The position numbers and the translations under genes are program-made. A DNA stretch of 64,000 nt from contig JAKSMI010000003.1 in NCBI GenBank assembly GCA_024400635.1, positions 127,076-191,075 on the forward strand, given 5' to 3'. This document shows positions 12,882 through 64,000 of the stretch, piece by piece (positions within the stretch are counted from its first letter, which is position 1; each line of letters opens with the position of its first letter). This stretch comes from Bacteroidales bacterium (GTDB taxonomy: Bacteria; Bacteroidota; Bacteroidia; Bacteroidales; WCHB1-69). The notes beneath the pieces are model-generated. The model ran no database searches and was not told the origin of the DNA. It saw only the letters and a list, made by a program, of their open reading frames with translations.

Positions 12882-12908
12882 TTTATTGATACATAAACAA
12901 ATTCTCTA

Positions 12909-13379: not shown

Positions 13380-13387
13380 CTACAACC

Positions 13388-20018: not shown

Positions 20019-20039
20019 CAATTAACAATTGGCAATTAG
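19998..20039. repeat. CAATTAA 7-bp tandem repeat
   Basis: Four exact CAATTAA units (19998-20025) and two decayed ones (to 20039). The array overlaps the last codons and stop of the upstream dus gene. Similar AT-rich filler recurs next to the restriction genes at 56949, 58838 and 61883. Confidence 0.7.
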
Positions 20040-20109
20040 CAACTTAATTTCTTATTCTCAGAATTTCTTTATTAAACAATCTTCTATCTTCTTCATTGAT
20101 ATTTTTTTG

Positions 20110-25514: not shown

Positions 25515-25547
25515 TATAATCTATTAATTATTAATAATTTACAATGA

Positions 25548-49394: not shown

Positions 49395-51965
49395 ATGCCC
49401 TTAAAATCAAAGATATCCCTTGCCCGACTCGAGTCTTTCCTCAAAGCACAATGCGACCGTCTGCGTACCAGTATGGACGCCGCTGAATACAAGAACTACA
49501 TCATTGCGCTGCTCTTCCTCAAACGCATCAACGACCAGTTCGAGATTGACCGCGAAGCCCTCAAGGACGAACTCAAACGCCAATACCCAAATGCTGCTGA
49601 CAGCGACATCGAGGAGGAACTCGACGTGCCCGAAAAATACAACTGCTTCGTGCCCGAAAAGGCACGTTGGCACTTTGTACTCAACCCCACCGACGACAAC
49701 GGTGAGGAAGTCAGCTTGGGCGACGCGGTGACCACCGCGCTCAAGGAGGTGGAAATCGCCAACAGCGCACTCCTCTCCGGCGTGCTCAGCAAAACCAGGT
49801 TCAACGAACTCAACACCAAGAGCGAACGCGTGCTCGACGAGGAGACCATCCGCGACATCCTGCGCGATTTCGACAAATTCCCGAAACTGCAGGACGCCAA
49901 CTTCGAATTTCCCGACCTGTTGGGTGCCGCCTACGAATACCTCATCAAGTTCTTCGCCGAAAGCGCCGGCAAGAAGGCGGGCGAGTTTTACACGCCTTCG
50001 GAGGTCGTCTATCTGATGGGCCAAATTTTGCAGCCGCAGGAAACCGACGAAATCTGCGACCCCACCGTCGGCTCGGGCGGTCTGCTCATTACGATGCACA
50101 ACTACGTGGAAAACCGCTACGGCAGCGCCGCCAGACTCACCCTGCACGGGCAAGAGAAGTTTGACAGTCCCTACCAGATGTGCAAGATGAACATGATCTT
50201 CCACAACATCCGCAACGCCCGCATCGAGCAGGGCGACACGCTCACTACGCCCAAATTGGTGACCGGCGGCACGCTCAACCAATACGACATCGTGGTGGCC
50301 AACCCGCCCTTCTCGCAGAACTACACCACCGCCAATATGCAATTCAAGGAGCGTTTCCACAACTGGATGAGCAAGAAGAAACAGGCCGACTTTATGTTTG
50401 TGCAGCACATGATTGCCGTGCTGAAGAACAACGGCCGTATGGCGGTCGTGATGCCCCACGGCGTACTCTTCCGCGGCGGCGAGGAACAGAAGATGCGCGA
50501 ACGCCTCATCAACGGCGATGCCACCCAACCCGCCTGCATTCTCGAATGCGTCATCGGGTTGCCACAGGGACTTTTCTACGGCACCGGGATTCCCGCTTCA
50601 TTGTTGATCATCAACAAGAAAGACGCAAGCCGGCGCAAAGGTGTCTTTTTCATCAACGCCGACCGCGAATACAAGGAGGGCAAGAACCAGAACGCCCTGC
50701 GCCCCGAAGACATCGAAAAGATAAGCACCGTATATCACGAAAAGATAGAAATTGACGGTTACAGCCGTTTAGTCACCCGCGAGGAACTGGCAGCGGAGGA
50801 CTACAACTGCAACATCCGCCGCTACGTAGATAACTCCGAGGCGCCGACTCCGCAGGACGTGCGCGCCCACATCAACGGCGGCATCCCGCAAAGCGAAATC
50901 GACGAACTGAAAGCGAAGTTCGACTGCTACAAGGGGTTGCAAACGGAATTATTTACTAATGCTGAAAACGGGTATGCCAACTTTGCAGCATCGGTAACCG
51001 AAAAAGCATCCATAAAAACAATTATTGCCGAAAGCAAAGGAAAGAAGGAGGTTGTTGAAAACTATGCAAAGGCAATAGATGCGTTCTGGAAGAAATCGGA
51101 AGCCGATTTGGATTCATTGCATAATGGCAATATTTTCAATTTTAACAAGACGTTGACCGATACATTTGTTTCGGAGCTTACCAAACTCTCGGTTCTTGAT
51201 GCAAACCAGGTGCGCGGCTCGTTCGCACATTATGCAGACACCTTGCGCGGCGACTTCCGTAGCGTGCAATCCAGCGGCTGGACCGCGGAGCTGATTCCTG
51301 ACGACGAGCTGATTGCCAACGAGTTTCCTGAAGTGTTGGCAGACCTTCGCCGTTTCGAGAGCCGCCGCGACGAGCTGGAGGCCAAGTTTGTGGAGATTGC
51401 CGAGATGGAACCCGAAGAGTGGGACGCCTCGCAGTACGAAGTGATGCCGAAGTCTGCCATTGCGGAGGTGAAGGCCGAGCTGAAGGAACTGCGTGCGCAG
51501 AAGCGCGAGTTGGGCAAGGAGCAGAAAGCGTTAGAGAAGCGCCGCAAGGCTGGTGCCGTGGTGGATGCCGAAATGCGCCGGTGCATTGCCGCTTTGGGCA
51601 CCGTGGATGCGCAGATTGCCGACAAGGAGGCGGGCATTGCCAAGCACATGGCGTTGGAAGAGGAGCTGAAAGACTGCCGCAAGAAAATCCGCGAGATTGA
51701 GCAGAGCAAGGAGCAACTGGCCGACAAGGCGCGCGAGCAGATTTCCGACAACGACGCCCGCCGGCTGATTACCGCCCGCTGGCTGCACACCCTGCACGAA
51801 ACCATAGCAGTATATTTAGAAACTCACGCCCGCAAGTTGCAGCAGGACGTTGAGTTGCTGTACGACAAATACACCGTAACGCTCACCGCCCTGATTGCCG
51901 AACGCCAGCGCGCCACCGAGCAATTGGACGCTTATCTGAAGGAACTGGGATACACATTTAAATAA
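49395..51965 (+). CDS. hsdM: Type I restriction-modification system methyltransferase subunit
   Basis: The 856-residue N6-adenine methyltransferase subunit of a Type I R-M system. After the HsdM N-terminal helical domain (about 10-140) come SAM motif I DPTVGSGGLL (Asp222-) and catalytic NPPF (303-306). The segment from about 500 to the end is an unusually long, highly charged coiled-coil C-terminus (for example LRAQKRELGKEQKALEKRRKA), making the subunit much longer than the roughly 500-residue classical form. Codon use is GC-rich compared with the chromosome, except for a more AT-rich patch near 50940-51190. It is followed 8 bp later by hsdS. Methylation is directed by HsdS. Confidence 0.95.
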   Translation: MPLKSKISLARLESFLKAQCDRLRTSMDAAEYKNYIIALLFLKRINDQFEIDREALKDELKRQYPNAADSDIEEELDVPEKYNCFVPEKARWHFVLNPTDDNGEEVSLGDAVTTALKEVEIANSALLSGVLSKTRFNELNTKSERVLDEETIRDILRDFDKFPKLQDANFEFPDLLGAAYEYLIKFFAESAGKKAGEFYTPSEVVYLMGQILQPQETDEICDPTVGSGGLLITMHNYVENRYGSAARLTLHGQEKFDSPYQMCKMNMIFHNIRNARIEQGDTLTTPKLVTGGTLNQYDIVVANPPFSQNYTTANMQFKERFHNWMSKKKQADFMFVQHMIAVLKNNGRMAVVMPHGVLFRGGEEQKMRERLINGDATQPACILECVIGLPQGLFYGTGIPASLLIINKKDASRRKGVFFINADREYKEGKNQNALRPEDIEKISTVYHEKIEIDGYSRLVTREELAAEDYNCNIRRYVDNSEAPTPQDVRAHINGGIPQSEIDELKAKFDCYKGLQTELFTNAENGYANFAASVTEKASIKTIIAESKGKKEVVENYAKAIDAFWKKSEADLDSLHNGNIFNFNKTLTDTFVSELTKLSVLDANQVRGSFAHYADTLRGDFRSVQSSGWTAELIPDDELIANEFPEVLADLRRFESRRDELEAKFVEIAEMEPEEWDASQYEVMPKSAIAEVKAELKELRAQKRELGKEQKALEKRRKAGAVVDAEMRRCIAALGTVDAQIADKEAGIAKHMALEEELKDCRKKIREIEQSKEQLADKAREQISDNDARRLITARWLHTLHETIAVYLETHARKLQQDVELLYDKYTVTLTALIAERQRATEQLDAYLKELGYTFK

Positions 51966-51973
51966 GCAGCACA

Positions 51974-53011
51974 ATGACGAAATGGGTTACTAAAAAGTTG
52001 GGAGAAGGCTTAGTGAAAAGCATTTGTACTGGCAAGCTAGATGCCAATGCAATGGTTGAAGGCGGTGCATATAGATTTTATACTTGTGCTAAAAATTATT
52101 CATTCATTGATGAATATGCTTTTGATGATGAAGCATTATTGATTTCTGGCAATGGTGAATATGTTGGCTACGTACATTATTACAAAGGAAAATTCAATGC
52201 TTATCAAAGAACATATGTTTTGCGAAATTTCTCCATTGACATACATTTTCTTCAATGCTACCTCAATTACTTTTTAAGAGATAGAATAAAGAAAGAAATG
52301 AATGCTGGCAGCATACCATTTATTAAAATGGGTACATTAACTGAAATGCCTATCACTTATCCCGAATCCCTCGCGGAGCAGCGTCGCATAGCGGGGATAT
52401 TGAGCAGTGCAGACGGGGCAATAGCGGCATCGGAGGCGCTGATAGCGAAGTACCGCAACATCAAGCGCGGCCTCCTCGCCACCCTGCTGCAACCCAAAGA
52501 GGGGTGGAAGAAGGTGAAGCTGGGGGAATGCTTGACTATCGGCAACGGACAAGATTACAAGCATTTGCATAAAGGTGATATTCCAGTTTACGGAACTGGT
52601 GGTGTGATGACTTACGTTGATGATTATCTTTACGAAGGTGAAACTGTTTGCATTGGGAGAAAAGGAACAATTAACAAACCGATTTTTCATTGTGGCAAAA
52701 TCTGGACGGTTGACACGTTGTTTTACACCCACTCATATGTCAATGTATTGCCATTATTTATGTACTATGCTTTTTGTTGTATTGATTGGTTGAGATACAA
52801 CGAAGCTACTGGTGTTCCTTCGCTTTCTAAAGAAACAATATACAAAATAGAAATCAATATTCCCTCAGACCTTGCCGAGCAGCGTCGCATTGCGGAGATA
52901 TTGTCGAGTGTGGATGCGAAGATTGCGGCGGAGGAGAAGGTGGTGGAGAAATACAAGGGCGTGAAGAAGGGGCTGATGGAGGAGATGATGAAAGAAAATA
53001 ATTGTTTGTAA
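51974..53011 (+). CDS. hsdS: Type I restriction-modification system specificity subunit
   Basis: A 345-residue DNA-recognition subunit with two target-recognition domains (about 1-135 and 178-300). Each is followed by a conserved helix: LAEQRRIAGILSSADGAI (about 136-152) and LAEQRRIAEILSSVDAKI (about 302-319). The two conserved regions are near-identical in DNA (52373-52409 and 52874-52910), while the recognition domains are AT-rich and unrelated to each other. This is the mosaic pattern expected from domain exchange. The final KKGLMEEMMK is repeated outside the gene at 53507-53612. It defines the sequence specificity of both methylation and cleavage. Confidence 0.93.
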   Translation: MTKWVTKKLGEGLVKSICTGKLDANAMVEGGAYRFYTCAKNYSFIDEYAFDDEALLISGNGEYVGYVHYYKGKFNAYQRTYVLRNFSIDIHFLQCYLNYFLRDRIKKEMNAGSIPFIKMGTLTEMPITYPESLAEQRRIAGILSSADGAIAASEALIAKYRNIKRGLLATLLQPKEGWKKVKLGECLTIGNGQDYKHLHKGDIPVYGTGGVMTYVDDYLYEGETVCIGRKGTINKPIFHCGKIWTVDTLFYTHSYVNVLPLFMYYAFCCIDWLRYNEATGVPSLSKETIYKIEINIPSDLAEQRRIAEILSSVDAKIAAEEKVVEKYKGVKKGLMEEMMKENNCL

Positions 53012-53045
53012 ATAATTAGAATACAACTTTTAAAGTTATTAGGTT

Positions 53046-53474
53046 ATGGATATGAGCATTCAAACAGCATTAATAGCGGCAGGTTCCGCTTTTCTTGGCG
53101 CATTAGTACCAAGTGTATTTTCATATTTAGGGAAACGACAAGAGTTTAAAAATGCAAAGAAAGTTAGGCTTAATGAAATAAAAATTCAAGTCTACGAAGA
53201 ATATTTCAACACTCTACAAAATATGGTTCAGAATTCTAATCCTGATAATTTCAGTGCTCTACAGTCCAGCACTATAAAAATTTTGATGTTTGCTGACAAA
53301 GGTTTAGCGAACATCGTCAATGATTATATCCGTCGTTTGGTACAATCAACAACTACCACACCACTCACAAAAGAGCAACATATGGATTATCAAACAAAAA
53401 TCATAAATGAGATACGTAAAGAATTAGGATATACGAGTAGTGATTTAGAAAAAATTGAAATAGTTAGGTGCTAA
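53046..53474 (+). CDS. Small membrane-anchored protein, unknown (R-M accessory gene A)
   Basis: A 142-residue protein with one N-terminal hydrophobic helix (about 5-28, ALIAAGSAFLGALVPSVFSY) followed by a basic patch KRQEFKNAKKVR and a charged helical soluble part containing EIKIQVYEEYFNTLQN. No recognised domain. It is AT-rich and lies between hsdS and a second copy of the hsdS tail, so it was probably captured together with that tail. A single-pass anchor with a cytosolic helical domain is common among defence effectors, but the function is not known. Confidence 0.6.
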   Translation: MDMSIQTALIAAGSAFLGALVPSVFSYLGKRQEFKNAKKVRLNEIKIQVYEEYFNTLQNMVQNSNPDNFSALQSSTIKILMFADKGLANIVNDYIRRLVQSTTTTPLTKEQHMDYQTKIINEIRKELGYTSSDLEKIEIVRC

Positions 53475-53506
53475 CATAAGCACAGAACAAATCTTTATCG
53501 TCAAAC

Positions 53507-53612
53507 TCTAAATTCTATTTCGAAGATTGCCGCCGAGGAGAAGGTGGTGGAGAAATACAAAGGCGTGAAGAAAGGGCTGATGGAAGAGATGATGAATAAA
53601 AAGAATCTATAA
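53507..53612 (+). pseudogene. Copy of the hsdS 3' end
   Basis: An open stretch ending in TAA that encodes KIAAEEKVVEKYKGVKKG followed by LMEEMM, identical in protein to the last part of the hsdS above. Aligned to 52917-52992 over 76 bp it has 5 differences, all at third codon positions. There is no start codon or recognition domain. It must derive from a different hsdS allele, not from a recent local copy, and marks the right end of accessory gene A. Confidence 0.8.
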
Positions 53613-53623: not shown

Positions 53624-55918
53624 ATGAAAAAAAAGAAAGAACAAACTTCGTTTTTACAGAGAGCAATAGAAGGTTTATCTCAAGAAGGTTTTGATGAAGC
53701 TGTTAGCATTTTTCAAAAATATTATCTTAAGAACGAAATCGTTAATGTAAATGGAACTAATGATGGCGGTTGTGATATTAAAATATACCAGAATACAAGA
53801 GAAATAAAAAAATGTGTTCAAGTTACAGTTCGAAAAGATTGGGAAAATAAGTTAAAAAAAGAATTAGAAAATGCAAATAATTTAATCACAAAATATAATT
53901 ACTCTGATAAATATGATTTTTTCTGTTCTTCGGTTATTTCCGAATCCAAGATTGAAGAGTGTAAGCAATATGCATTGAATGATTATTCTATTGATTTGAC
54001 TATTTACGAGGCACATAGACTGTCACAATTACCATGTGTAGAATTAAAAAATCATCTATATACTTTGCATGATGATATTATTCTAAAACCAAATCAATTG
54101 AACCTTGGTAAAGCTACTAAATCTTTGTATGATTTTCTAACTGTTGGCAAAGGTTCAACGGATATAAAAAACGACATTCTAAATTCTTTTATTGTTTCAA
54201 TTTTATATGAGAAAGGGTTGATGTCAATCACTTCACTAAAAACAGAATTAGAAAGCAGACTGCAAAAAAATATACCAGATATCATTCATGTTATAAACCT
54301 TTTAAAAACCGCACATAGGGTGGAGAGTGATTCATCCAATAAAGAAATGATAAAGCTTTCTGAGTCAGAATATGAGAATGCAAAAAATATTTTTGCTTAT
54401 GCCTCTCTGATGGAAGATGAGTTTAATAAAGGGTTTCAAGAAATTATATTAAAGTATAATTTATCAAATGGTTCCGAGGTGTTAGAAAAATTGAAGTTAT
54501 TGTATCAAAGTTATTATAAAAATGACATTGACGAAGAATTCAATACCTCTCATCATAAAACTGATGATGATATTTATAAATCTTTTAACACTTATTTGAG
54601 TTCTGTAATTCAAGATACCAACTTAAAGGATTCTTTCGTTTGTGAAATTAAAAAATTATGTGAAAATAATACATATTTGAATAGAATTAGCGCAAGTGAA
54701 TCCTTTCTAAGTCTATATAAATCGGATAGATTAGAACAGTATATCGGGCAAAAACAAAAGAATTTGTTTGTTGATACTCCTGTTCTTGTCTATTTATTGT
54801 GTGCGATATTTCAAGTTGATGATTCTGTAGATTGGAGAGATTCGCTATACCGTTCTGTTAAATCTCTTAATAACCTTAAAAATCAAAATTCAGAGATATT
54901 ACATTTCAATGTAATGTTTGACTATGTTGGAGAAGTTGCCGGCGAACTGAAAAAAGCTTTTCAAATTGCACAATTGGAAAATGCTCCGTGTTTTTCTAAT
55001 TTAGGGAATACAAAAAACACGTTTTATAATTATTACAGACAATTAAAAGATAATGAATTAAGTGATTTTTATGACCAAATTAATAATTTTGAGGATTTTC
55101 TTGACAACTTAGGTATTGAAGAAACGGATTTATGTAATGACAATTTGTTAATTGGAAGATTATGTCAAATCATTGAAGATATAGAAGTTAATATTGCATA
55201 TTGTCCTTTACTCGATGATTTTAATAGTGCAAAAATTGCATATGAAAAACAGTTATATGGAAAACAAAAATCTGATGCTGCTATAACTCATGATGTTAGA
55301 CAAATACTTTTCTTATTAAATACAGAGGATTATGAAAATAATGTTTTCATAACTTGGGATATGTCATTGTCGAAACTTAGGGATAATCTAAAAGACAATA
55401 ATAATCAGTATAAATATTTCCCAATTTATAATCCTGCAAAATTATCAAATAAAATAGCTTTAGAATTATTTAATATAGATTCTTCAGCAATAACCAATGA
55501 TATTTATATTTATGCGGATAAAAGCTTCGGTTTATCAAGCAAAGTCAAATCGTTACTTGATATAATTTCTCCTATTTTTGGAAATAAAGAAGCCAAAGAT
55601 TCTAAGATGGTTAAAGCATTGGGAACTATAAGAAAACAGCAATTAGACTCTATAGAGTATAATGAAATGGAGTCTAATAAATCCAACTTACCTATAGAAA
55701 GCGTATTTATAAAAATTCTAGATATAATAGCAGTGAAAGAACAAGAAAAACAAAATAGTGATGTCATGAAAAAATTCATAGCATTTATGATAGATCCTAA
55801 AAATGAGAAATATATCTTAGAAGAAATAAAAAAATGGTCTGATGCTATATCGAAAAAAGCAAATTATAATCATGATGTCTTTTTTGAAAATATTTCAAAA
55901 GTTGAAATAAAAAAGTAG
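53624..55918 (+). CDS. Large protein with REase-like N-terminus and PIN-like domain (R-M accessory gene B)
   Basis: A 764-residue, very AT-rich gene (13 G+C in 60 bases at 54481-54540). The N-terminal about 130 residues resemble an Mrr-type PD-(D/E)XK fold: NGTNDGGCDIKI (Asp51) and CVQVTVRKDW (64-73). The usual catalytic Lys after Gln is Thr68, with Lys71 nearby. After a helical middle region, residues about 380-600 look like a PIN nuclease: FVDTPVLVYLL (Asp384), YVGEV (Glu437), SDAAITHDV (Asp551/Asp557) and FITWDMSLSKLR (Asp579). Two nuclease-like modules in one polypeptide would suit an effector. It follows the hsdS-tail copy by 11 bp and is followed by an hsdR-start copy. Domain calls are by motif only. 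Confidence 0.65.
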   Translation: MKKKKEQTSFLQRAIEGLSQEGFDEAVSIFQKYYLKNEIVNVNGTNDGGCDIKIYQNTREIKKCVQVTVRKDWENKLKKELENANNLITKYNYSDKYDFFCSSVISESKIEECKQYALNDYSIDLTIYEAHRLSQLPCVELKNHLYTLHDDIILKPNQLNLGKATKSLYDFLTVGKGSTDIKNDILNSFIVSILYEKGLMSITSLKTELESRLQKNIPDIIHVINLLKTAHRVESDSSNKEMIKLSESEYENAKNIFAYASLMEDEFNKGFQEIILKYNLSNGSEVLEKLKLLYQSYYKNDIDEEFNTSHHKTDDDIYKSFNTYLSSVIQDTNLKDSFVCEIKKLCENNTYLNRISASESFLSLYKSDRLEQYIGQKQKNLFVDTPVLVYLLCAIFQVDDSVDWRDSLYRSVKSLNNLKNQNSEILHFNVMFDYVGEVAGELKKAFQIAQLENAPCFSNLGNTKNTFYNYYRQLKDNELSDFYDQINNFEDFLDNLGIEETDLCNDNLLIGRLCQIIEDIEVNIAYCPLLDDFNSAKIAYEKQLYGKQKSDAAITHDVRQILFLLNTEDYENNVFITWDMSLSKLRDNLKDNNNQYKYFPIYNPAKLSNKIALELFNIDSSAITNDIYIYADKSFGLSSKVKSLLDIISPIFGNKEAKDSKMVKALGTIRKQQLDSIEYNEMESNKSNLPIESVFIKILDIIAVKEQEKQNSDVMKKFIAFMIDPKNEKYILEEIKKWSDAISKKANYNHDVFFENISKVEIKK

Positions 55919-55926
55919 TTTTAATT

Positions 55927-55962
55927 ATGTCCGAATACACCAACGTTGAGCGCCCGTTCCTC
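55927..55962 (+). repeat. Truncated hsdR 5'-end copy 1
   Basis: 36 bp identical to the first 12 codons of hsdR (61930-61965), including the ATG. Reading continues to TAA at 55984-55986, giving a 19-residue peptide that starts MSEYTNVERPFL. The next gene starts 20 nt after this stop. Confidence 0.9.
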
Positions 55963-56006
55963 ACTAAAACCAAACAATTGAAATAACAACCAAACACCAC
56001 CATACC

Positions 56007-56942
56007 ATGTCAAAAACCACCTTTTGGGATATCATTATCCGAACATTAGAAGCCGTAAAGACGCCATTGACACCGCAAGAAATTTGGCAGAAAGCCCACG
56101 AATTGGATCTGATGGACGATTTCAGCACCACTGGCAAAACACCTGAGGCCACTATTACCGCCTACTGCTATGTTGAAATGAAAAAGAATGGCGATAGCTC
56201 AGAAATTGTGAAAGCCAGCTTGAAACCCACCCGCTTCGCTCTACGAAAATTCTTTAAAAGCGAAACGACAACTACGGTCAAACAAGTCAAAGCTCCGGAA
56301 GTCAAGTTCCAGGAGCGGGATTTGCACCCTCTTTTGGTGGCCTACGCTTACGCCGATTCCCATTTCAAAGCCCGCGTCAAAACCATCTTCCACGAAGTTT
56401 CTTCCAAAAAACAAAAAGGCCAGAACAAATGGCTGCATCCCGATTTGGTGGGTGTACAATTCCCATTTGATGAATATAGTCGGGAAACCTTAGAAATGCA
56501 GAACCACCTTTCCGTTTCCTCCATCAAACTGTTTTCGTTTGAGATGAAAATCGACCTCACTTTCACTAATCTGCGTGAATGTTTCTTCCAGGCGGTTTCC
56601 AATTCCAGTTGGGCCAACGAAGGGTATCTCGTAGCACTGCACATTGATGAGGACACCGACTTCAGAGACGAAATGCGCCGCCTCAACAACGCCTTCGGCA
56701 TCGGCATCATCCAACTCGACCCGGAAAATCTGGCCGAAAGCCAAATCCTTTTCCCTGCAAAAACAAATACGGAAATCGATTGGGACACCGTCAACCGGCT
56801 CTGCACAGAAAACAGCGATTTCTGTGATTTTCTGAAATTGATTTCCGAAGACTGCAAACTCGGTAAAGTCAAAAGCAAATACGACGACATCATTGAGCTT
56901 GACAATGTCGAAAAATACGTTAAAAGCAGGAATATCAAATAA
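56007..56942 (+). CDS. HARE-HTH domain protein, HrgA-like (R-M accessory gene C)
   Basis: A 311-residue protein related to the HrgA/COG2958 group. The N-terminal about 80 residues form a HARE-HTH winged helix (TTFWDIIIRTLEAVKTPLT, EIWQKAHEL, ...TPEATITAYCYVEMKK, ...RFALRKFF), a domain that recurs in restriction and chromatin proteins. The C-terminal half has LHPLLVAYAYADSHFKA, VGVQFPFDEY and WANEGYLVALH, without clear catalytic motifs. hrgA in Helicobacter replaces a restriction enzyme gene, so the link with R-M loci is known. It is bracketed by hsdR-start copies 1 and 2. Confidence 0.7.
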   Translation: MSKTTFWDIIIRTLEAVKTPLTPQEIWQKAHELDLMDDFSTTGKTPEATITAYCYVEMKKNGDSSEIVKASLKPTRFALRKFFKSETTTTVKQVKAPEVKFQERDLHPLLVAYAYADSHFKARVKTIFHEVSSKKQKGQNKWLHPDLVGVQFPFDEYSRETLEMQNHLSVSSIKLFSFEMKIDLTFTNLRECFFQAVSNSSWANEGYLVALHIDEDTDFRDEMRRLNNAFGIGIIQLDPENLAESQILFPAKTNTEIDWDTVNRLCTENSDFCDFLKLISEDCKLGKVKSKYDDIIELDNVEKYVKSRNIK

Positions 56943-56948
56943 TTACAC

Positions 56949-57033
56949 ATTATCAATTGTCAATTATCAATTAAAATAAGATTATGTCCGAATACACCAA
57001 CGTTGAGCGCCCGTTCCTCGACAAACTCCGCGA
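56949..57033 (+). repeat. 85-bp perfect direct repeat, left copy
   Basis: Identical over 85 bp to 58838-58922: 35 bp of AT-rich leader plus 50 bp of hsdR start. Together the two copies bracket the AlbA_2 gene, so homologous recombination between them would delete exactly that module. Confidence 0.9.
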
Positions 57034-57058
57034 AATCGGGTGGACTGTGATAGACAAA
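56984..57058 (+). repeat. Truncated hsdR 5'-end copy 2
   Basis: 75 bp matching the first 25 codons of hsdR with one synonymous difference (GAA for GAG in codon 17). It stays open to TGA at 57065-57067 (27 residues). It is the longest of the four truncated copies. Confidence 0.9.
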
Positions 57059-57077
57059 AGTTTATGAAAAGTTATGT

Positions 57078-57085
57078 TATCTTTG
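57078..57085 (+). promoter_or_regulatory. -7 promoter box inside the AlbA_2 module
   Basis: TATCTTTG matches TAnnTTTG 40 bp before the AlbA_2 start. Among the accessory genes this is the only module with an obvious promoter of its own. Confidence 0.55.
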
Positions 57086-57125
57086 CAGTTGGAAAATTTT
57101 AGTCATCTTTAATACGATTATCAAT

Positions 57126-58730
57126 ATGGCGTTACCTATCAACATTGAGGATTTGCTGAATAAAAACCGAATTGAATCGGATAGAATCGAGTTCAAAAAA
57201 GGATGGAATCCTAAGACGGTTTATCACTCTGTCTGCGCCTTTGCCAACGATATCGACAACATTGGCGGGGGGTATATCCTTATTGGTGTAGAAGAAGAAA
57301 ACGGTATCGCAAAACGTCCTGTTTGCGGAATCCACGAAAACGCATTGGATAAAATCCAACGCGAAATCCACCAATACAACCAACTGTTGGAACCCTTGTA
57401 TGTTCCGCGTCTTTCGGTAGAAGACATCGACAACAAAAAAATCCTTGTCATCTGGGTGGCTTCCGGCAACAATCGCCCCTACTCGGCACCTGCCGATGTT
57501 ACCGCAAAACTGAAGAAGCCGGTTTTCTACGTCCGCTATGGTTCATCTTCCATTGAAGCCAAAGGCGAACTCCTTGATCAATTGAGAGACACAGCCAACC
57601 GCATACCGTTTGATGACAGAGGAAATGAAAACATATCCATAAATGATATTTCCCCATTGTTACTAAAAGACTATCTTGTTAAAGTCGGCAGTCGGCTTGC
57701 CGATTCGAACTTTACTGGCGATATGGCTAACATTCTGGAACAGATGGATTTGCTTGACGGCCCAGTTGAAAAAAGACAGATTAAAAACGTGGCAGCCATG
57801 ATGTTTTCAGAAAACCCCGCCAAGTTTTTCAAAGAAACTCAGGTGGATATTGTCGTTTTTCCCGACGGTCGCGAAAACAATCCCGATAATCTGATGGAAG
57901 TACCACCTATAAAAGGTCCCGTTCCTGAAATCATTGCCAACACTTTGAACTATCTTCGCACCAACGTTATCATGGAACGAATAGTAAAACCAAAGGATAG
58001 TGAAAAATCCATCAGATTCTTCAATTTCCCGTTCCAGGCCCTGGAAGAATCTGTGGTAAACGCCCTTTACCATAGAAATTACCAAGAACGAGAACCTGTT
58101 GAAATCACCATCGAACCAAATAGAATCAGCATCCTCAGTTATTCCGGTCCAGACAGGTCAATCAGTATGCAAGCCATCAAGGAAGCAAAATCCTTGCGTT
58201 CCAGAAGATACAGGAACAGAAGATTGGGCGAATTTCTGAAAGAACTGGATTTGACGGAGGGAAGAGCCACTGGCATCCCGACCATCCAAAAAAAACTTGC
58301 CACAAACGGTTCTGCAGCAGCAACTATCGAAACTGACGAAAACAGAACATATTTTCTGATTGACATACCTTGTCACCCAGATTTCGTCAACGATGTCCTA
58401 GTTAATGTCCCAGTTGATGTCTTAGTTGAATCGTCGGAAATTCAGAGTGTTGCATCAAAAATATCCCAGTTGTGTCCCAGTTGTGTCCCAGTTGTGTCCC
58501 AGTTGATCCTGAAAAAAATGGCAGTTTGTCTTTTAAGGTGCAAAAACGAAATTTCTGGGCATCAACTGCTTGAAGATATTGAAGTGACGTCATACAAACA
58601 GAAAAAAAGAAAATATATTGATAAATTATTAGATATGAATTTGATACGAATGACAAAACCGGAAAAACCAACTGCAAAAGATCAAAAATACATTTGCACA
58701 GATCTGGGGTTGGAAATTGTAGGAAAGTAA
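57126..58730 (+). CDS. AlbA_2/Schlafen-type ATP-binding protein (R-M accessory gene D)
   Basis: A 534-residue protein with an N-terminal AlbA_2 (Schlafen AAA_4) domain: ESDRIEFKKGW (17-27), AFANDIDNIGGGYILIGVEE, then a GHKL-type ATP-binding domain with EESVVNALYHRNY (about 306-318) and GRATGIP. The C-terminal about 75 residues look like a winged helix (ISGHQLLEDIEVTSYKQKKRK...LLDMNLIRM). Between them lie short tandem DNA repeats (423-434 and 447-460). Genes of this type are found between Type I subunits in several phyla. The biochemical role is unresolved. It is flanked by a perfect 85-bp direct repeat. Confidence 0.8.
   Translation: MALPINIEDLLNKNRIESDRIEFKKGWNPKTVYHSVCAFANDIDNIGGGYILIGVEEENGIAKRPVCGIHENALDKIQREIHQYNQLLEPLYVPRLSVEDIDNKKILVIWVASGNNRPYSAPADVTAKLKKPVFYVRYGSSSIEAKGELLDQLRDTANRIPFDDRGNENISINDISPLLLKDYLVKVGSRLADSNFTGDMANILEQMDLLDGPVEKRQIKNVAAMMFSENPAKFFKETQVDIVVFPDGRENNPDNLMEVPPIKGPVPEIIANTLNYLRTNVIMERIVKPKDSEKSIRFFNFPFQALEESVVNALYHRNYQEREPVEITIEPNRISILSYSGPDRSISMQAIKEAKSLRSRRYRNRRLGEFLKELDLTEGRATGIPTIQKKLATNGSAAATIETDENRTYFLIDIPCHPDFVNDVLVNVPVDVLVESSEIQSVASKISQLCPSCVPVVSQLILKKMAVCLLRCKNEISGHQLLEDIEVTSYKQKKRKYIDKLLDMNLIRMTKPEKPTAKDQKYICTDLGLEIVGK
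58392..58427 (+). repeat. 12-bp tandem repeat inside the AlbA_2 gene
   Basis: Three units at 58392-58403 (GATGTCCTAGTT), 58404-58415 and 58416-58427, with single-base differences. Being a multiple of three, changes in copy number would alter only the length of the (D/N)V(L/P)V linker, not the frame. Related units recur just beyond the stop codon (about 58744-58769 and 58801-58824). Confidence 0.7.
58465..58505 (+). repeat. 11-bp tandem repeat inside the AlbA_2 gene
   Basis: CCCAGTTGTGT three times (58465, 58476, 58487) and CCCAGTTG at 58498-58505, without mismatches. The unit is not a multiple of three, so gain or loss of one copy changes the reading frame before the C-terminal winged helix. 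Confidence 0.85.
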
Positions 58731-58837
58731 ACGCATACGATTAAATGTCCTAGTTGATGTCCAAGTTAAACTTGCAGATATTTAGAATGTTATAATAAAA
58801 TGTTCCAGTTGATGTCCTTGTTGAAAAGTTACAAATA

Positions 58838-58922
58838 ATTATCAATTGTCAATTATCAATTAAAATAAGATTATGTCCGAATACACCAACGTTGAGCGCC
58901 CGTTCCTCGACAAACTCCGCGA
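58838..58922 (+). repeat. 85-bp perfect direct repeat, right copy
   Basis: Right partner of 56949-57033 in the same orientation, 1,889 bp away; see that entry. Confidence 0.9.
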
Positions 58923-58923
58923 G
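58873..58923 (+). repeat. Truncated hsdR 5'-end copy 3
   Basis: 51 bp identical to the first 17 codons of hsdR. It then reads GGC GAA TAA, making a 19-residue peptide. The stop is 19 nt before the DUF1016 gene start. Confidence 0.9.
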
Positions 58924-58951
58924 GGCGAATAAATAACAAACAGAATTGAAA

Positions 58952-60031
58952 ATGAACGAGATAGAACAAAACAATCAAATTGTCGCACCAGTGGTGTCAA
59001 AATCTTTGGTTACGGATTTGCGGCAGATTATCGAGCAGGCACGCAGTCGTGTGGCAGTCACAGTCAACAGCGAGCTTACGATGATGTATTGGCACATCGG
59101 CGAACGCATCAACCGCGAAGTGCTTGACAATCAGCGAGCCGAATATGGAAAGCAGATTGTCTCAACAGTGTCGCGACAATTACAAGCCGAATATGGAGCC
59201 AAAGGATTTGAAGAACGCACTATCCGTAGAATGATGCAATTTGCCGCCATGTTTCCTGACATTCAAATTGTGTCAACACTGTTGTCAAAATTGTCGTGGT
59301 CTCATTTTCTGATAGTTATGACTTTGAAAGATGAAATTCAACGGGAGTTTTATCTTACAATGGCTGCAACAGAACAGTGGAGCGTGAGAACTTTGCAGGC
59401 GAAAATCGACGGGATGCTTTACGAGCGCACGGCCATCGCTTCCAAACCTGATGCGCTGATAAAACAGGAACTTTCGCAACTGCGCGATGACAATGTGCTT
59501 TCTCCCGATTTGGTGTTCAAAAGTCCTTATTTTTTGGAATTTACCGGTCTGAAGGGAATGTACAGCGAGAAAAGCTTGGAAGACAGTCTGTTGGCTCATT
59601 TGGAGCAGTTCATCATAGAGTTGGGCAACGGTTTTAGCTTTGTGGCACGCCAGAAACGTATGATTATTGATGGTGAGGATTTTTATCTCGACCTGCTGTT
59701 TTATCATCGCCGTTTGCACCGCCTTATCGCCATAGATTTGAAACTCGGCAGTTTCAAGGCACAATACAAGGGTCAGATGGAGCTTTACCTGCGCTGGCTG
59801 GAACAAAACGAAATGGAACCCGGCGAGGAAACGCCCCTCGGTCTGTTGCTTTGCACCGAAGGCGGAGAGGAGCAGATTGAACTTCTGCAACTCGACAAGG
59901 CAGGCATCAAGGTTGCCCAGTATATGACGGAACTTCCACCTCGCGAAGTGCTGATGCGCCAAATCCAAAAATCGCTGGAAGCCGCCAAGGAAAGATTTGA
60001 TTACCCAAGTAATGCAGAAAATCACGAATAA
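58952..60031 (+). CDS. DUF1016/YhcG PD-(D/E)XK nuclease-domain protein (R-M accessory gene E)
   Basis: A 359-residue protein. The N-terminal DUF1016_N domain (about 10-150, RQIIEQARSRVAVTVNSEL, MMYWHIGERI, FEERTIRRMMQFA) precedes the PD-(D/E)XK nuclease domain with DFYLDLLFYHR (Asp247), IAIDLKLG (Asp262-x-Lys264) and YKGQMELYLRWL. The ATG at 58952 is preferred over an upstream TTG at 58946. The family is strongly associated with defence loci and with Type I R-M genes. It lies between hsdR-start copies 3 and 4. The nuclease motif is intact. Confidence 0.88.
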   Translation: MNEIEQNNQIVAPVVSKSLVTDLRQIIEQARSRVAVTVNSELTMMYWHIGERINREVLDNQRAEYGKQIVSTVSRQLQAEYGAKGFEERTIRRMMQFAAMFPDIQIVSTLLSKLSWSHFLIVMTLKDEIQREFYLTMAATEQWSVRTLQAKIDGMLYERTAIASKPDALIKQELSQLRDDNVLSPDLVFKSPYFLEFTGLKGMYSEKSLEDSLLAHLEQFIIELGNGFSFVARQKRMIIDGEDFYLDLLFYHRRLHRLIAIDLKLGSFKAQYKGQMELYLRWLEQNEMEPGEETPLGLLLCTEGGEEQIELLQLDKAGIKVAQYMTELPPREVLMRQIQKSLEAAKERFDYPSNAENHE

Positions 60032-60055
60032 TTATTCATTGTTAATTAGAAAACT

Positions 60056-60087
60056 ATGCCCGAATACACCAACGTCGAGCGCCCGTT
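60056..60087 (+). repeat. Truncated hsdR 5'-end copy 4
   Basis: 32 bp matching the hsdR start with two differences (codon 2 CCC for TCC, codon 7 GTC for GTT). It encodes a 14-residue peptide MPEYTNVERPFSIN ending 21 nt before the DUF262 gene. The 22 bp at 60027-60048 also recur before the real hsdR (61883-61904). Confidence 0.88.
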
Positions 60088-60121
60088 TTCAATAAATTAA
60101 GATTAACCAAATATTCATAAT

Positions 60122-61867
60122 ATGTCAAAATTAAATGTAGATCAGAAAAATATCAGTTCACTGTTTTCAGACAAGAAAGCAGATTTTTTAATTCCCGACT
60201 ATCAGCGTCCATACGCTTGGGAAGAAGACAAATGCAAGACTTTGTGGGATGACATTTTCACTTTCGCTTTCCCAGATAATGACTGCGACAAATTTGATGA
60301 AAATGAGGAATATTATTTGGGTCCCATTGTTACATTTAAAAATGATAATGGCAAAATGGAGGTCATAGATGGTCAGCAACGTTTGACCACGTTGATGCTT
60401 CTGCTCCGTGCCTTCTACGATGGTTTTGCCAATGCCAACGATAAGAAATCGGTTTCCACACGACAAAGAATTGAAAAATGCATCTGGAAGACAGATGAGT
60501 ACGATGAACCCAATTTGGATGTTTTGAAAATCAATTCTGATGTCGCCACCGATGAAGACAAGGAAGAATTTCTTTCCATCCTAAAAACAGGATTATGCAA
60601 TAAAGACCAAAAGAGTCGTTATGCCAAAAACTTCAAATTTTTCAAGCAGGAAATCGAACAACTGTTGCATAACTTCCCTACTTTTTACGCTTTAATGCCC
60701 AATAGAATTCTGAACAATTGCATTCTTCTTCCTATTGAAGCAGAATCACAGAATACCGCCTTGCGAATTTTTTCCACATTGAACGATAGAGGTTTGCCTT
60801 TGTCGGATGCCGATATTTTCAAAGCTCAATTCTATAAGTATTACGCAAAGAAGAATCAAAAAAACGATTTTATCAACCGTTGGAAAGAACTGGAAGAGAA
60901 AGTCAACAAAATATTCCATCCCATACAAGGCACTCCGATGGACGAGCTTTTCACCCGCTATATGTATTATGAAAGAGCTTTACAAAAAATCAAATCTTCT
61001 ACCACAGAAGCTTTGCGAAAATTCTATGAAAAGAATAGTTATGCTCTTTTAAACAGAGAAGAAACACTTTATAATCTGGAACTTTTAGCTGATTTTTGGA
61101 ATGATGTTGCCGATCAGGATAAGGATCGATTCTCCGAAAAAGTATTACGTCGTTTATTCGTATTGAACTATGCTCCCAACGGTATGTGGAACTATTTTGT
61201 TTCGGTTTACTTTATGAAGAACAAAGATGCAGAAGGCAAACTGGATGATGAAAAATTCTACCAATTTTTACAAAAAACGACTGCTTTTGTATGGACATAC
61301 GCCGTTACAAATCCTGGTGTTAATGCTCTTCGTACCCCAATTTATTCTGAAATGATAAATATTGTTGAAGACAAAGATGTGACTTTTGGCGAATTCAAAT
61401 TTGATTCCGAAAAAGTCAAATCAATGTTCAACAATTACGTTTTTTCAAACAACAGAACGATAACCAAATCCATGCTCACTTGGTGGGCTTTCAACAAAGA
61501 AGAACAAAGTTTAATACCATTGGAAACCACATTGGAAATAGAGCACATATTTGCCAGAAAGAGACAAGAAACAGAAAATTCGTTAAGCGACAAGAAGAAT
61601 TTGGAAGTTTTAGGCAACAAAGCTTTGTTGGAAAAACGTATCAATATCCGAGCTTCTGATTATCGTTTTTCTGACAAAATAAAATACTACAAAGGTTTTA
61701 CCAATGCCAAAGGACAGATTAAAGAAGGTACTAAAATCTATGAATTAAGTTCAGTATTGTCTTCCAACGTTGATTTCACCGAAACCGACATTCAAAACCG
61801 AAACAGCAACATTATCAATACCTTTGTTGATTTCTTGAAGCAAAACGGATTAACCAAGAGCGAGTAA
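60122..61867 (+). CDS. DUF262/DUF1524 GmrSD-like protein (R-M accessory gene F)
   Basis: A 581-residue protein. The N-terminal DUF262 (ParB-like NTPase/nickase) domain has FLIPDYQRPYAWEED (22-36), GPIV and VIDGQQRLTT with the DGQQR motif at 83-87. The C-terminal DUF1524 HNH region has LEIEHIFA (His475) and NLEVLGNKAL (Asn493, Asn499). The canonical His-Ile-x-Pro is His-Ile-Phe-Ala here. GmrSD members are Type IV enzymes that cut modified (glucosylated hydroxymethylcytosine) DNA, so this could complement the Type I system against modified phages. It is followed 62 bp later by hsdR. Confidence 0.85.
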   Translation: MSKLNVDQKNISSLFSDKKADFLIPDYQRPYAWEEDKCKTLWDDIFTFAFPDNDCDKFDENEEYYLGPIVTFKNDNGKMEVIDGQQRLTTLMLLLRAFYDGFANANDKKSVSTRQRIEKCIWKTDEYDEPNLDVLKINSDVATDEDKEEFLSILKTGLCNKDQKSRYAKNFKFFKQEIEQLLHNFPTFYALMPNRILNNCILLPIEAESQNTALRIFSTLNDRGLPLSDADIFKAQFYKYYAKKNQKNDFINRWKELEEKVNKIFHPIQGTPMDELFTRYMYYERALQKIKSSTTEALRKFYEKNSYALLNREETLYNLELLADFWNDVADQDKDRFSEKVLRRLFVLNYAPNGMWNYFVSVYFMKNKDAEGKLDDEKFYQFLQKTTAFVWTYAVTNPGVNALRTPIYSEMINIVEDKDVTFGEFKFDSEKVKSMFNNYVFSNNRTITKSMLTWWAFNKEEQSLIPLETTLEIEHIFARKRQETENSLSDKKNLEVLGNKALLEKRINIRASDYRFSDKIKYYKGFTNAKGQIKEGTKIYELSSVLSSNVDFTETDIQNRNSNIINTFVDFLKQNGLTKSE

Positions 61868-61929
61868 AGACCAAGAACATCAAATAATTATTCATTGTTA
61901 ATTATTCATTATCAATTTTCAATACCATC

Positions 61930-64000
61930 ATGTCCGAATACACCAACGTTGAGCGCCCGTTCCTCGACAAACTCCGCGAGATCGGGTGGACTGTGATAGA
62001 CAAAGGAGCTTGTGGCATTCCGCAAGACCCCGCCGACTCCCTGCGCACCTCTTTCGATGAGGTCGTCCTCAAAGACGTGTTTTACCGTATGCTCGGCGAA
62101 CTCAACCCCTGGATTACCGCAGAGCAGAAAGACTACTGCTACGAAAAAATCACCGACAACCACGGCGCACTCATCGACGTGAACCGGACCATCCACAAAC
62201 TGCTCGTAGAAGGTATCCACCTGCGCACGCCCAACGAACAGACCGGCGAGGAAAACCCCACCGCGAAAATCATCAACTTCGACCGCTACCAGCAAAACTC
62301 CTTTATCGCCATCAACCAGTTCCGCGTCAACACCCACAACACCAAGCCCTTCATCATCCCCGACATCGTATGCTTTGTCAACGGTCTGCCCCTCGTGGTC
62401 ATCGAGTGCAAGGACGAGGACGTTTCGGAACCGATGAGCGAGGCCTTCACCCAGATACAGCGCTACGCCAACCGGCGCACCACCGACGATCCCTTCGCCG
62501 CCGGCATCGAGGAGGGCTGCGAACGCCTCTTCCACACCAACCTCTTCTCGGTCATCACGCACGGCACCGAAGCCCGCTGCGGCACCCTGTCCGCCGACTT
62601 CGACTTCTACCTCAACTGGCGCGACATCTTCCCCGAAGAGTACGCCGAGGGTGTCAACATTGAACCCTCCGGCCGCCAGGAAATCCTCATCAAGGGAATG
62701 TTCAACCACGAAATCCTCATCGACATCTTCCGCAACTTCACCCTCTTCAAGCAGAAAGGCGACAACACCATCAAGCTCATCTGCCGCTATCCGCAGTACC
62801 GCGCCGTGGGCAAGATGATTGAAAAGCTGCAAAAGGGCACCGACTGGAAAAGCCGCAGCGGCGTCATCTGGCACACCCAAGGCAGCGGCAAGTCGCTCAC
62901 GATGGTATTCCTCGTCCGCAAAATGCGCCATATCGCCGACCTGCGGACCTACAAGATCCTGATGGTGGTGGATCGCCAGGATTTGGAAGACCAGCTGGCC
63001 GAAACCGCCGAAGACACCGGCGAACTTCGCCACGACCCTAAAACCAAAAAGATAGAAAACATCGTCGAAAACCGCCAGGCACTCGTCAAACTCGAGGACG
63101 ACTCCGCGGACCTGAATCTCGTGATGATTCACAAATTCGGCGAGAACAAAGAATACTCCCTCGAATCGCTCATCAAGTCGGGCATCGTTCCGCAGTACGA
63201 AACCTTCCCGGTCATCAACGCCAGCGACAAAATCCTCATCCTCATCGACGAGGCTCACCGTTCGCAAGGCGGCGAGATGGGCGACAACCTCTTCCAGGCC
63301 TTCCCCAACGCCGCACGCATCGGCTTTACCGGCACGCCGCTCATCACCCCGCACCACAAAGCCACCACCTGCGAACGCTTCGGACAGAAGGCCGGTGACT
63401 TCATCGATACCTACAAGATGAACGACTCCGTGCGCGACCGCGCCACCGTGGACATCAAGTACATCGGCCGCCAGAGCGAAGACCACATCCCCAACAAGGA
63501 CGAGTTCGACGAGGCCTTCGAGCAGACCTTCCGCAACTGCACTTCCGACGAGCGTATCGAAATACAGAAACGCTACGGCACTATGATCGCCTACCTTGAA
63601 AGCGCTGACCGCGTGATGAAGAACGCCCGCGATATGATGACGCACTTCGTGTCCGATATCTTGCCTAACGGCTTCAAGGCCCAAGTGGTGGCATCGTCCA
63701 TCTTGGCCGCCGTGCGCTACAAAATCGCGTTGGAGCGCCTTATCCCCGAATTTATCAAAGCCGAAGAGACCAAATCGGAAGCCGACCGCGACGAAGTGAT
63801 GCTGCAACGCCTGCGTATGCTGAAAGTACGTGCCGTGGTGTCGAGTCAGGGAAACAACGAAGACGCCATCATCCGCGATGCACGCTTACAGGCAGCCGCT
63901 GACGACGCCATCGCCAACTATAAAAAGGATTTCAACCCCGAAGATCCCGCTACGGGCATCGGCATCCTCTGCGTGTGCGACCGTCTGCTCACCGGCTTCG
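61930..64000 (+). CDS. hsdR: Type I restriction endonuclease subunit HsdR (partial, right edge)
   Basis: The first 690 codons of the motor/nuclease subunit; no stop before the window end. The nuclease core is PDIVCFV (Asp145) with VVIECK (Glu159, Lys161), and the SF2 translocase has Walker A QGSGKS (Lys321) and DEAH (440-443), followed by RIGFTGTPL. All motifs look intact. The N-terminus MSEYTNVERPFLDKLREIGW is the sequence that occurs in truncated form four times upstream. Codon use is GC-rich (34 G+C in 60 bases at 62401-62460), like hsdM and unlike the accessory genes. Confidence 0.96.
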   Translation, partial: MSEYTNVERPFLDKLREIGWTVIDKGACGIPQDPADSLRTSFDEVVLKDVFYRMLGELNPWITAEQKDYCYEKITDNHGALIDVNRTIHKLLVEGIHLRTPNEQTGEENPTAKIINFDRYQQNSFIAINQFRVNTHNTKPFIIPDIVCFVNGLPLVVIECKDEDVSEPMSEAFTQIQRYANRRTTDDPFAAGIEEGCERLFHTNLFSVITHGTEARCGTLSADFDFYLNWRDIFPEEYAEGVNIEPSGRQEILIKGMFNHEILIDIFRNFTLFKQKGDNTIKLICRYPQYRAVGKMIEKLQKGTDWKSRSGVIWHTQGSGKSLTMVFLVRKMRHIADLRTYKILMVVDRQDLEDQLAETAEDTGELRHDPKTKKIENIVENRQALVKLEDDSADLNLVMIHKFGENKEYSLESLIKSGIVPQYETFPVINASDKILILIDEAHRSQGGEMGDNLFQAFPNAARIGFTGTPLITPHHKATTCERFGQKAGDFIDTYKMNDSVRDRATVDIKYIGRQSEDHIPNKDEFDEAFEQTFRNCTSDERIEIQKRYGTMIAYLESADRVMKNARDMMTHFVSDILPNGFKAQVVASSILAAVRYKIALERLIPEFIKAEETKSEADRDEVMLQRLRMLKVRAVVSSQGNNEDAIIRDARLQAAADDAIANYKKDFNPEDPATGIGILCVCDRLLTGF

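What the first reader, a model, noticed from the sequence alone, without database searches (positions are those of the whole stretch)
55927..61965. Serial capture of defence genes at the start of hsdR, each leaving an hsdR 5'-end scar
Between hsdS and hsdR five accessory genes (B-F) are arranged as gene, partial hsdR start, gene, partial hsdR start, and so on, ending with the full hsdR. The four partial copies (55927-55962, 56984-57058, 58873-58923, 60056-60087) are 36, 75, 51 and 32 bp long, all on the + strand, all beginning exactly at the hsdR ATG and nearly identical to 61930 onward. They differ only in how far into hsdR they extend. Such a series is unlikely by chance and is not explained by any visible transposase or integrase. 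It suggests a repeated event in which a new gene plus a fresh hsdR start was inserted behind the existing hsdR start, building a modular defence array. Genes between hsdS and hsdR are known from other Type I loci (for example the R-linked genes of Campylobacter), but I do not know of a description of a scar array like this.
Basis: partly seen in the sequence, partly recalled or inferred. Interest (0 to 1): 0.93.

Follow-up and report, generated by a model that had tools for sequence, protein, structure and literature searches.

The report
Spliced restriction loci stack defence genes
In a Bacteroidales genome and its relatives, the space between two genes of a DNA-restriction operon holds rows of defence-like genes separated by leftover starts or ends of the operon's own genes, which are likely the seams left when different versions of the operon were spliced end to end.

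Summary
Close relatives repeat the pattern: 11 of 12 alleles carry hsdR-start copies in the hsdS-hsdR gap. Of 96 other gap loci of the phylum, 8 carry hsdR-start and 8 hsdS-end copies; the heads of 746 other genes give 2. All 24 hsdR-start copies lie between two accessory genes; none of 33 gaps with at most one called gene has any copy. Where both relics adjoin (5 loci), the hsdR start comes first and the hsdS end follows within 10 nt. The genome's second type I locus holds one 620-nt hsdS-end-bounded unit twice. A 568-nt tract identical in a relative starts in hsdS and ends inside the hsdS-end copy, while hsdM and hsdR are only 77-80% identical. Best explanation: alleles with different cargo were spliced, and relic-bounded cassettes were then exchanged. 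Embedded defence genes and one-ended recombination are known; this boundary-relic array is a new variant.

The parts
49395..51965 (+). hsdM (type I methyltransferase)
   Evidence: N6_Mtase, HsdM_N
51974..53011 (+). hsdS (specificity subunit); left border of the gap
   Evidence: Methylase_S
52993..53560 (+). 568-nt tract identical in relative L009, from the end of hsdS through gene A into the hsdS-end copy
   Evidence: exact tract, (local 5993-6560); hsdM 76.9% and hsdR 79.9%
53046..53474 (+). accessory gene A, 142 aa, no Pfam or PADLOC match
53521..53606 (+). hsdS 3'-end relic (86 nt, 91% to 52917-53002)
53624..55918 (+). accessory gene B, 764 aa, no Pfam or PADLOC match
55927..55962 (+). hsdR-start relic 1 (36 nt, 100%)
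56007..56942 (+). accessory gene C, HARE-HTH protein
   Evidence: PF05066
56984..57058 (+). hsdR-start relic 2 (75 nt, 98.7%); 35 nt upstream are shared with relic 3
57126..58730 (+). accessory gene D, Schlafen AlbA_2 protein
   Evidence: PF04326
58873..58923 (+). hsdR-start relic 3 (51 nt, 100%)
58946..60031 (+). accessory gene E, DUF1016/YhcG PD-(D/E)XK nuclease family (PADLOC PDC-S02)
   Evidence: 95.7% identical to L009
60056..60087 (+). hsdR-start relic 4 (32 nt, 94%); its upstream flank matches the flank of the intact hsdR in L009
60122..61867 (+). accessory gene F, GmrSD (DUF262) family
   Evidence: PF03235, PF07510
61930..64000 (+). intact hsdR (runs past the window; open frame 1100 aa in the genome); right border of the gap
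   Evidence: HSDR_N, SWI2_SNF2

Best explanation
Each partial hsdR start and each partial hsdS end is likely the seam where two alleles of the same type I locus, with different genes between hsdS and hsdR, were spliced end to end. Anatomy shown here: a seam is (accessory gene)-(first 29-108 nt of hsdR)|(end of hsdS, or nothing recognisable)-(next accessory gene), and where both relics adjoin they stand in that order. Inferred mechanism: incoming DNA of another allele pairs with the resident locus at one end by ordinary homology (hsdM/hsdS or hsdR) and joins at the other end with little or no homology, near a gap border, so that one block of cargo comes to lie beside the other and both intact border genes survive. 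Short seams are predicted to persist because long direct repeats would recombine and delete the cargo. Once formed, the relics match the border genes of every other allele, so a cargo gene flanked by relics is predicted to move as a cassette by general homologous recombination, with no recombinase of its own; one such exchange is visible (gene A). Divergence of the relics suggests, on few arrays, that newer blocks enter on the hsdS side. The cargo is predicted to add anti-phage functions to the restriction enzyme.
For: (1) Border specificity: hsdR head on + in 19 of 108 gap loci at E<=1e-5, on minus in 0, hsdR windows 151-600 0-1; hsdS last 150 nt on + in 11 of 108. Head copies: 18 of 131 hsdR loci against 2 of 746 other genes (outside the family 8 of 120); hsdS-end copies 7 of 125 against 2 of 788. 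(2) Position: 24 of 24 head copies have a called accessory gene on both sides; 0 of 33 gaps with at most one called gene have a head or tail copy, against 8 of 63 larger gaps outside the family for each kind (p = 0.048). (3) Order: head-like and tail-like matches that adjoin occur in 5 loci (L012, L114, L149 and the related pair L123/L126), 5 of 5 head first; distances with the best-scoring alleles are 9, 4, 8, -7 and -7 nt. L149 and L123/L126 are in-frame fusions; in L114 an hsdS end also runs by an ATGA overlap into the hsdR start. (4) The window genome's second type I locus (L170) has three hsdS-end copies, each before a gap gene, and a 620-nt, 94% identical unit (hsdS end-module-hsdS end) twice, before different genes. 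(5) Exchange: 568 nt identical between window and L009, from the end of hsdS into the hsdS-end relic; gene E 95.7% identical, its tract running from relic 3 to relic 4; hsdM and hsdR 77-80%. (6) Allelic origin: in 8 of 17 family relics another genome's hsdR start fits better than the own one. (7) L009 has gene E followed directly by hsdR, with the flank found upstream of relic 4, so a state without F exists. (8) hsdS-hsdR loci with neither cargo nor copies exist (L103, L104).
Against: Most head relics have no recognisable hsdS end behind them, so the incoming side is not identified there. The position test is only just significant (p = 0.048). Microhomology at the seams is uncertain: with the best-scoring alleles only L123/L126 overlap (7 nt); choosing other hsdS alleles gives overlaps of 10 nt (L114) and 3 nt (L149). 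Relics 1-3 of the window are identical or nearly so to the own hsdR, which duplication within one lineage would also give. hsdS-end copies also occur on the minus strand (5 of 108: L015, L114, L172, L218, L219), and one of the 11 + copies (L172) is a dispersed repeat that the hsdR 451-600 window matches at the same place; the hsdS side is thus less specific. One weaker head copy (L006 9872-9904, E=5e-5) has no gene between it and hsdR. A shared relic plus promoter-like leader stands before different modules (L012 against L013; L007 against L008), which needs a further exchange. No head copies in 8 plasmid loci and 6 E. coli loci; one 22-nt hsdS-end match in L224. No donor alleles or strain-level before/after series were found.
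Confidence: 0.62

Rival explanations
1. Insertion with long target duplication: each accessory gene inserted into the hsdR start and duplicated the first 30-100 nt around the insertion point.
For: Direct repeats of variable length flank single modules; this pattern is described for RM genes in Helicobacter (passages seen in PMC3031569 and PMC1643837). Copies 2 and 3 share 35 nt upstream as well.
Against: It predicts relics in single-gene gaps, but 0 of 33 gaps with at most one called gene have one and 24 of 24 relics have a gene before them (p = 0.048); it does not give hsdS ends behind hsdR starts or relics closer to other alleles than to the own hsdR (8 of 17).
Confidence: 0.16
2. Tandem duplication of the hsdS end-gap-hsdR start segment inside one lineage, followed by replacement of the cargo in one copy through transfer from other strains.
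For: Gives the same head-then-tail seam; L170 holds one unit twice at 94%; relics 1-3 of the window match the own hsdR almost perfectly.
Against: Only 6 of 76 multi-gene gaps have any related pair of gap genes, and only L170 a near-identical one; 8 of 17 relics match another allele better.
Confidence: 0.14
3. The hsdR starts are functional leaders (short peptides or expression signals) kept in front of the modules.
For: By eye, a promoter-like TATTTTTGC element follows several relics, and relic plus leader is shared by different modules; all four window relics reach an in-frame stop soon after the seam.
Against: Relics decay: 26 synonymous and 23 non-synonymous codon differences and one stop in the 15 of 17 relics that align without gaps, indels in the other two, against 457:152 among intact starts (pairwise, not independent); L008 has an in-frame stop, and L009, the second copy of L010 and L014 are degraded.
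Confidence: 0.05
4. A mobile element or integrase uses the hsdR start as its attachment site.
For: Repeated use of one target and cassette-like modules.
Against: Relic ends vary from nt 29 to 108; no transposase or integrase domain in the 36 accessory proteins scanned; hsdS ends serve as well.
Confidence: 0.03

Closest known systems
Defence genes embedded between hsdS and hsdR (DarTG2 in the RptR island, PMC12255303; TgvAB, PMC11411939; passages seen; the Payne et al. preprint cited there was not seen)
   Same: Genes of other defence systems inside the type I locus; PMC12255303 calls the hsdS-hsdR site a potential recombination hotspot.
   Different: In the passages seen no partial hsdR or hsdS copies, seams or relic arrays are described.
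Insertion with long target duplication (Nobusato et al. 2000, Kobayashi group; seen only as cited in PMC3031569 and PMC1643837)
   Same: RM-linked insertion with long, variable direct repeats.
   Different: There RM genes are the inserts; here the RM borders are the target, copies come from both border genes, and they lie between occupied blocks.
Sequential displacement arrays of T6SS effector-immunity modules in Vibrio (PMC5361080; passages seen)
   Same: Serial addition of modules from other strains leaves partial genes; the authors propose (perhaps) homology-facilitated illegitimate recombination plus ordinary homologous exchange.
   Different: There old effectors are displaced and immunity genes kept; here both border genes stay intact and cargo genes are kept, with relics of both borders.
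Homology-facilitated illegitimate recombination (PMC3240628; abstract seen)
   Same: One end joins by homology, the other without.
   Different: A process measured in the laboratory, not a locus architecture.
Campylobacter rlo/mlo genes between type I genes (recalled, no call)
   Same: Accessory genes in the type I locus.
   Different: No relic arrays recalled; not tested here.

Membership tests
Type I restriction-modification locus | hsdM, hsdS and hsdR with their domains in one locus | tested here: met
   N6_Mtase/HsdM_N, Methylase_S, HSDR_N/SWI2_SNF2
Defence genes embedded in a type I locus | defence-like genes between hsdS and hsdR | tested here: met
   GmrSD, YhcG (PDC-S02), AlbA_2, HARE-HTH in the window; TIR/ThsB, AbiH, NACHT, ABC-3C, SEFIR in relatives
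Defence genes embedded in a type I locus | anti-phage activity of the cargo | not testable with these tools
   needs phage assays
Insertion with long target duplication | direct repeats of one target flank the inserted gene | tested here: met
   hsdR-start copies flank C, D, E and F
Insertion with long target duplication | the repeat arises with the first insertion into an empty target | tested here: not met
   0 of 33 gaps with at most one called gene carry a copy; 24 of 24 copies have a gene before them; difference to larger gaps p = 0.048, so not a strong test
Homology-facilitated illegitimate recombination product | one junction homologous, the other with little or no homology | tested here: inconclusive
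   adjoining relics lie within 9 nt of each other or overlap by 7 nt with best-scoring alleles; the homologous end leaves no trace
Integron or transposon-like cassette system | recombinase gene or fixed recombination sites | tested here: not met
   no recombinase domain in the 36 accessory proteins scanned, not all gap proteins of the relatives; relic ends vary from nt 29 to 108

The most novel reading that the evidence does not exclude
The hsdS-hsdR gap of Bacteroidota type I loci is a recombinase-free gene-capture platform: alleles with different cargo are spliced end to end, and the fossil ends of hsdS and hsdR left at the seams become homology arms that turn each captured defence gene into a cassette exchangeable among all alleles of the locus.
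Probability: 0.47. Interest if true: 0.85.

Novelty: new variant of a known kind. Interest (0 to 1): 0.73.

Why it matters
Defence genes are known to cluster and to sit inside restriction operons, but how they come to be there is mostly unknown. Here seams are still readable, so the route can be reconstructed: splicing of whole alleles, then exchange of relic-bounded cassettes by general recombination. If true, hsdS ends and hsdR starts are search tags for captured defence genes of unknown function, arrays can be ordered by the decay of their relics, and the question how defence islands grow without mobile elements becomes testable. The gap itself is common: 108 of 133 loci examined have at least 150 nt between hsdS and hsdR.

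Tried and rejected
Rejected: assembly artefact (recurs in independent assemblies and in single-contig genomes); transposon or integrase capture (no such domain in 36 accessory proteins scanned); target duplication as the main route (position and order, a moderate test); functional leader (decay). Dead ends: hsdR in viral contigs gave no relative; gene B in 393 genomes of the order gave itself and two distant hits (27-30%) and no donor allele; window DNA 55919-57090 in plasmids gave one match, inside gene C, in Persicobacter; plasmid and E. coli loci gave no head copies. Literature: ten searches showed no title or abstract on hsdR-start or hsdS-end relic arrays; that is limited to the open-access library held here. 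The Payne preprint was not looked up (no preprints are held) and Furuta 2010 is not held.

Dropped or limited: one search lists only part of its matches; of those listed 100 were fetched, chosen by hand roughly in order of E-value and skipping many with little upstream sequence. 10 of 133 loci had no hsdS upstream and 15 had hsdS next to hsdR; these 25 were left out of the 108-locus counts. hsdS and hsdM were assigned by profiles that I built and iterated; they were not checked one by one, and the 564-aa gene taken as hsdS in L149 looks doubtful. Four of the 33 small gaps have no called gene at all. L014's decayed copy is not counted among the 19. Gene calls are my own ORF calls. Per-gene and pairwise counts are not independent. 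28 gap proteins of relatives and 2 of L170 were scanned against Pfam, not all.
Full report
Observation. Two points were missed. Copies 2 and 3 share 35 more identical nt upstream of the ATG. And an 86-nt copy of the hsdS 3' end lies at 53521-53606, behind a first accessory gene A at 53046-53474 and before gene B. So the gap reads: hsdS - A - [hsdS end] - B - [hsdR start] - C - [hsdR start] - D - [hsdR start] - E - [hsdR start] - F - hsdR.

Cargo. C is a HARE-HTH protein, D a Schlafen AlbA_2 protein, E a DUF1016/YhcG nuclease-family protein (PADLOC PDC-S02), F a GmrSD protein; A and B have no Pfam or PADLOC match. B is one of 162 related proteins found among a capped set of candidates, including Prevotella proteins; the few rows with a name call it hypothetical or uncharacterised (best 120 listed). 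Relatives carry ThsB-like TIR, AbiH, NACHT and TIR-STAND, ABC-3C, SEFIR, PD-(D/E)XK, AAA and metallo-beta-lactamase-fold genes in the same gap; none of 28 proteins scanned from relatives and 2 from L170 has a transposase or integrase domain.

Relatives. Eleven alleles with 80-83% identical HsdR were found in MAGs titled as Bacteroidales or broader (L006-L016; one, L015, as Salinivirgaceae). At E<=1e-5, hsdR-start copies lie in the gap of 11 of 12 alleles including the window; the twelfth, L014, has a degraded copy by eye. Two loci whose HsdR is 51% identical over the first 167 residues (L103, L104) have hsdS 11-17 nt from hsdR, no cargo and no + strand copies.

Survey. I examined 133 type I loci: 12 family alleles, one Treponema locus, 20 picked by similarity and 100 from an HSDR_N search of 296 genomes of the phylum. 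108 have a gap of at least 150 nt between hsdS and hsdR, 15 have the genes adjacent, 10 have no hsdS upstream. In the 108 gaps, at E<=1e-5, the hsdR head (nt 1-150) has a + copy in 19 and a minus copy in 0; hsdR windows 151-300, 301-450 and 451-600 have 0, 0 and 1 on each strand (the one is repeat-rich L172). The hsdS end has a + copy in 11 and a minus copy in 5; the two hsdS windows before it have 1 each on + (one of them, L114, is itself a seam) and 0 on minus; the hsdS head has 0 on + and 3 on minus. One of the 11 hsdS-end copies (L172) is a dispersed repeat. Outside the family 8 of 96 gaps have head copies and 8 of 96 tail copies. Among other genes of the same loci, 2 of 746 heads and 2 of 788 ends have such partial copies, and hsdS heads 2 of 120; one of the two end copies overlaps a hsdR relic. 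Hence the relics come mainly from the two gene ends that bound the gap, more cleanly so for hsdR.

Position. All 24 head copies have a called accessory gene before and after them, and none of 33 gaps with at most one called gene has a head or tail copy; against 8 of 63 larger gaps outside the family this is just significant (p = 0.048). If single insertions duplicated the hsdR start, such gaps should show it. A relic thus looks like a seam between two blocks of cargo. One weaker copy (L006 9872-9904, E=5e-5) has no gene after it and may mark a lost block.

Order at the seam. A scan of all 108 gaps with the hsdR starts and hsdS ends of all loci found adjoining relics in five loci, all with the hsdR start first: L012, L114, L149 and the related pair L123/L126. 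With the best-scoring alleles the hsdS end starts 9, 4 and 8 nt behind the hsdR start in L012, L114 and L149 and overlaps it by 7 nt in L123/L126; with other hsdS alleles the overlap is 10 nt in L114 and 3 nt in L149, so microhomology is possible but not established. L149 and L123/L126 read as in-frame fusions. In L114 an hsdS end runs with an ATGA overlap into the 29 nt of hsdR, then another hsdS end follows; this reads as an empty allele caught between two others. This order is what end-to-end joining of two alleles gives.

A second locus in the same genome. L170 (G000:C12:165400-180600) has three hsdS-end copies, each before a gap gene. The unit hsdS end-132-aa gene-hsdS end (9468-10079) is repeated at 11938-12557 with 94% identity over 620 nt, before two different genes. 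Two sibling alleles with the same first module and different second modules, joined end to end, would give this; so would a tandem duplication with later replacement. Among 76 multi-gene gaps six have any related pair of gap genes.

Exchange at the relics. The window and L009 are identical over 568 nt (52993-53560), from the end of hsdS through A into the hsdS-end relic, then diverge into unrelated genes; their hsdM and hsdR are 76.9% and 79.9% identical. Gene E is 95.7% identical in the two, with identity falling to background around relic 3 on the left and relic 4 on the right. In L012 against L013, and L007 against L008, a relic plus promoter-like leader is shared (63 of 67 and 72 of 79 nt) but the next gene differs. 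So cargo moves in units that end at relics.

Direction. If new genes were always added at hsdR, left relics would be oldest. In the four family arrays with two or more relics the rightmost is the most diverged from its best hsdR start; against the own hsdR this holds in three of four. The hsdR-proximal block contains a YhcG, AAA or AlbA_2 gene shared with other alleles in 11 of 12, while the hsdS-adjacent gene is unique in 8 of 12. Both suggest arrival on the hsdS side; this rests on few arrays. In 8 of 17 relics another genome's hsdR start fits better than the own one.

Not functional peptides. In the 15 of 17 relics that align without gaps, 26 codons differ synonymously and 23 non-synonymously from the best hsdR start, with one stop; the other two carry indels. 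Intact starts differ 457:152 (pairwise counts). A promoter-like element behind several relics (by eye) is probably the module's own promoter (inference).

Scope. Of 12 plasmid regions fetched outside the phylum, 8 have a gap; none has a head copy and one (L224) a 22-nt hsdS-end match. Six E. coli loci with two DUF262 genes packed in the gap have none. The samples are too small to say that the process is limited to one phylum.

Known ground. Defence genes inside type I loci are described, and one paper calls the hsdS-hsdR site a potential recombination hotspot (PMC12255303, PMC11411939; passages). Long target duplication at RM genes is described (as cited in PMC3031569 and PMC1643837). Serial arrays with partial genes, explained perhaps by homology-facilitated illegitimate recombination, are described for Vibrio T6SS immunity genes (PMC5361080; passages). 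I saw no description of hsdR-start and hsdS-end relic arrays in the listings of ten searches of the held library.

Verdict. A real, recurrent and informative architecture. Shown: relics of both borders, their position, their order where they adjoin, the repeated unit in L170 and the exchanged tract. Inferred: splicing of alleles with one homologous and one near-non-homologous end, persistence by short length, cassette movement by general recombination, and defence function of the cargo.

Noticed in passing
G000:C12:165400-180600 (L170, gap 9545-13995): The genome's second type I locus is an array with hsdS-end relics and one unit present twice at 94% over 620 nt.
   Followed up: partly
window 58464-58505: 11-bp tandem repeat (TCCCAGTTGTG, 3.8 perfect copies) inside the AlbA_2 gene; a change in copy number would shift the frame, so it may be phase-variable. 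Related 12-bp repeats lie in the gene and behind its stop (58392-58429, 58745-58767).
   Followed up: no
window 56949-56973, 58837-58862, 61885-61921; elsewhere 19998-20047, 25509-25539: AT-rich repeats of period 7 or 14 stand just before relics 2 and 3 and before hsdR; period-7 repeats also occur elsewhere in the window, and similar repeats are seen by eye near modules in L006, L007 and L170. They could be recombination substrates or ordinary intergenic sequence.
   Followed up: partly
behind the hsdR relic in L006-L008, L010-L016: By eye a promoter-like TATTTTTGC-type element follows the relic, and the same relic plus leader stands before different modules (L012 against L013, L007 against L008).
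   Followed up: partly
window 53624-55918: Gene B (764 aa) belongs to an uncharacterised family (162 proteins found, itself included) without a Pfam match.
   Followed up: partly
L007 6467-7717: hsdS with a 636-nt internal direct repeat at 83% (two related halves).
   Followed up: no
L218 and L219 gaps: Minus-strand genes with stretches matching the hsdS head and end, possibly inverted hsdS copies for specificity switching.
   Followed up: no
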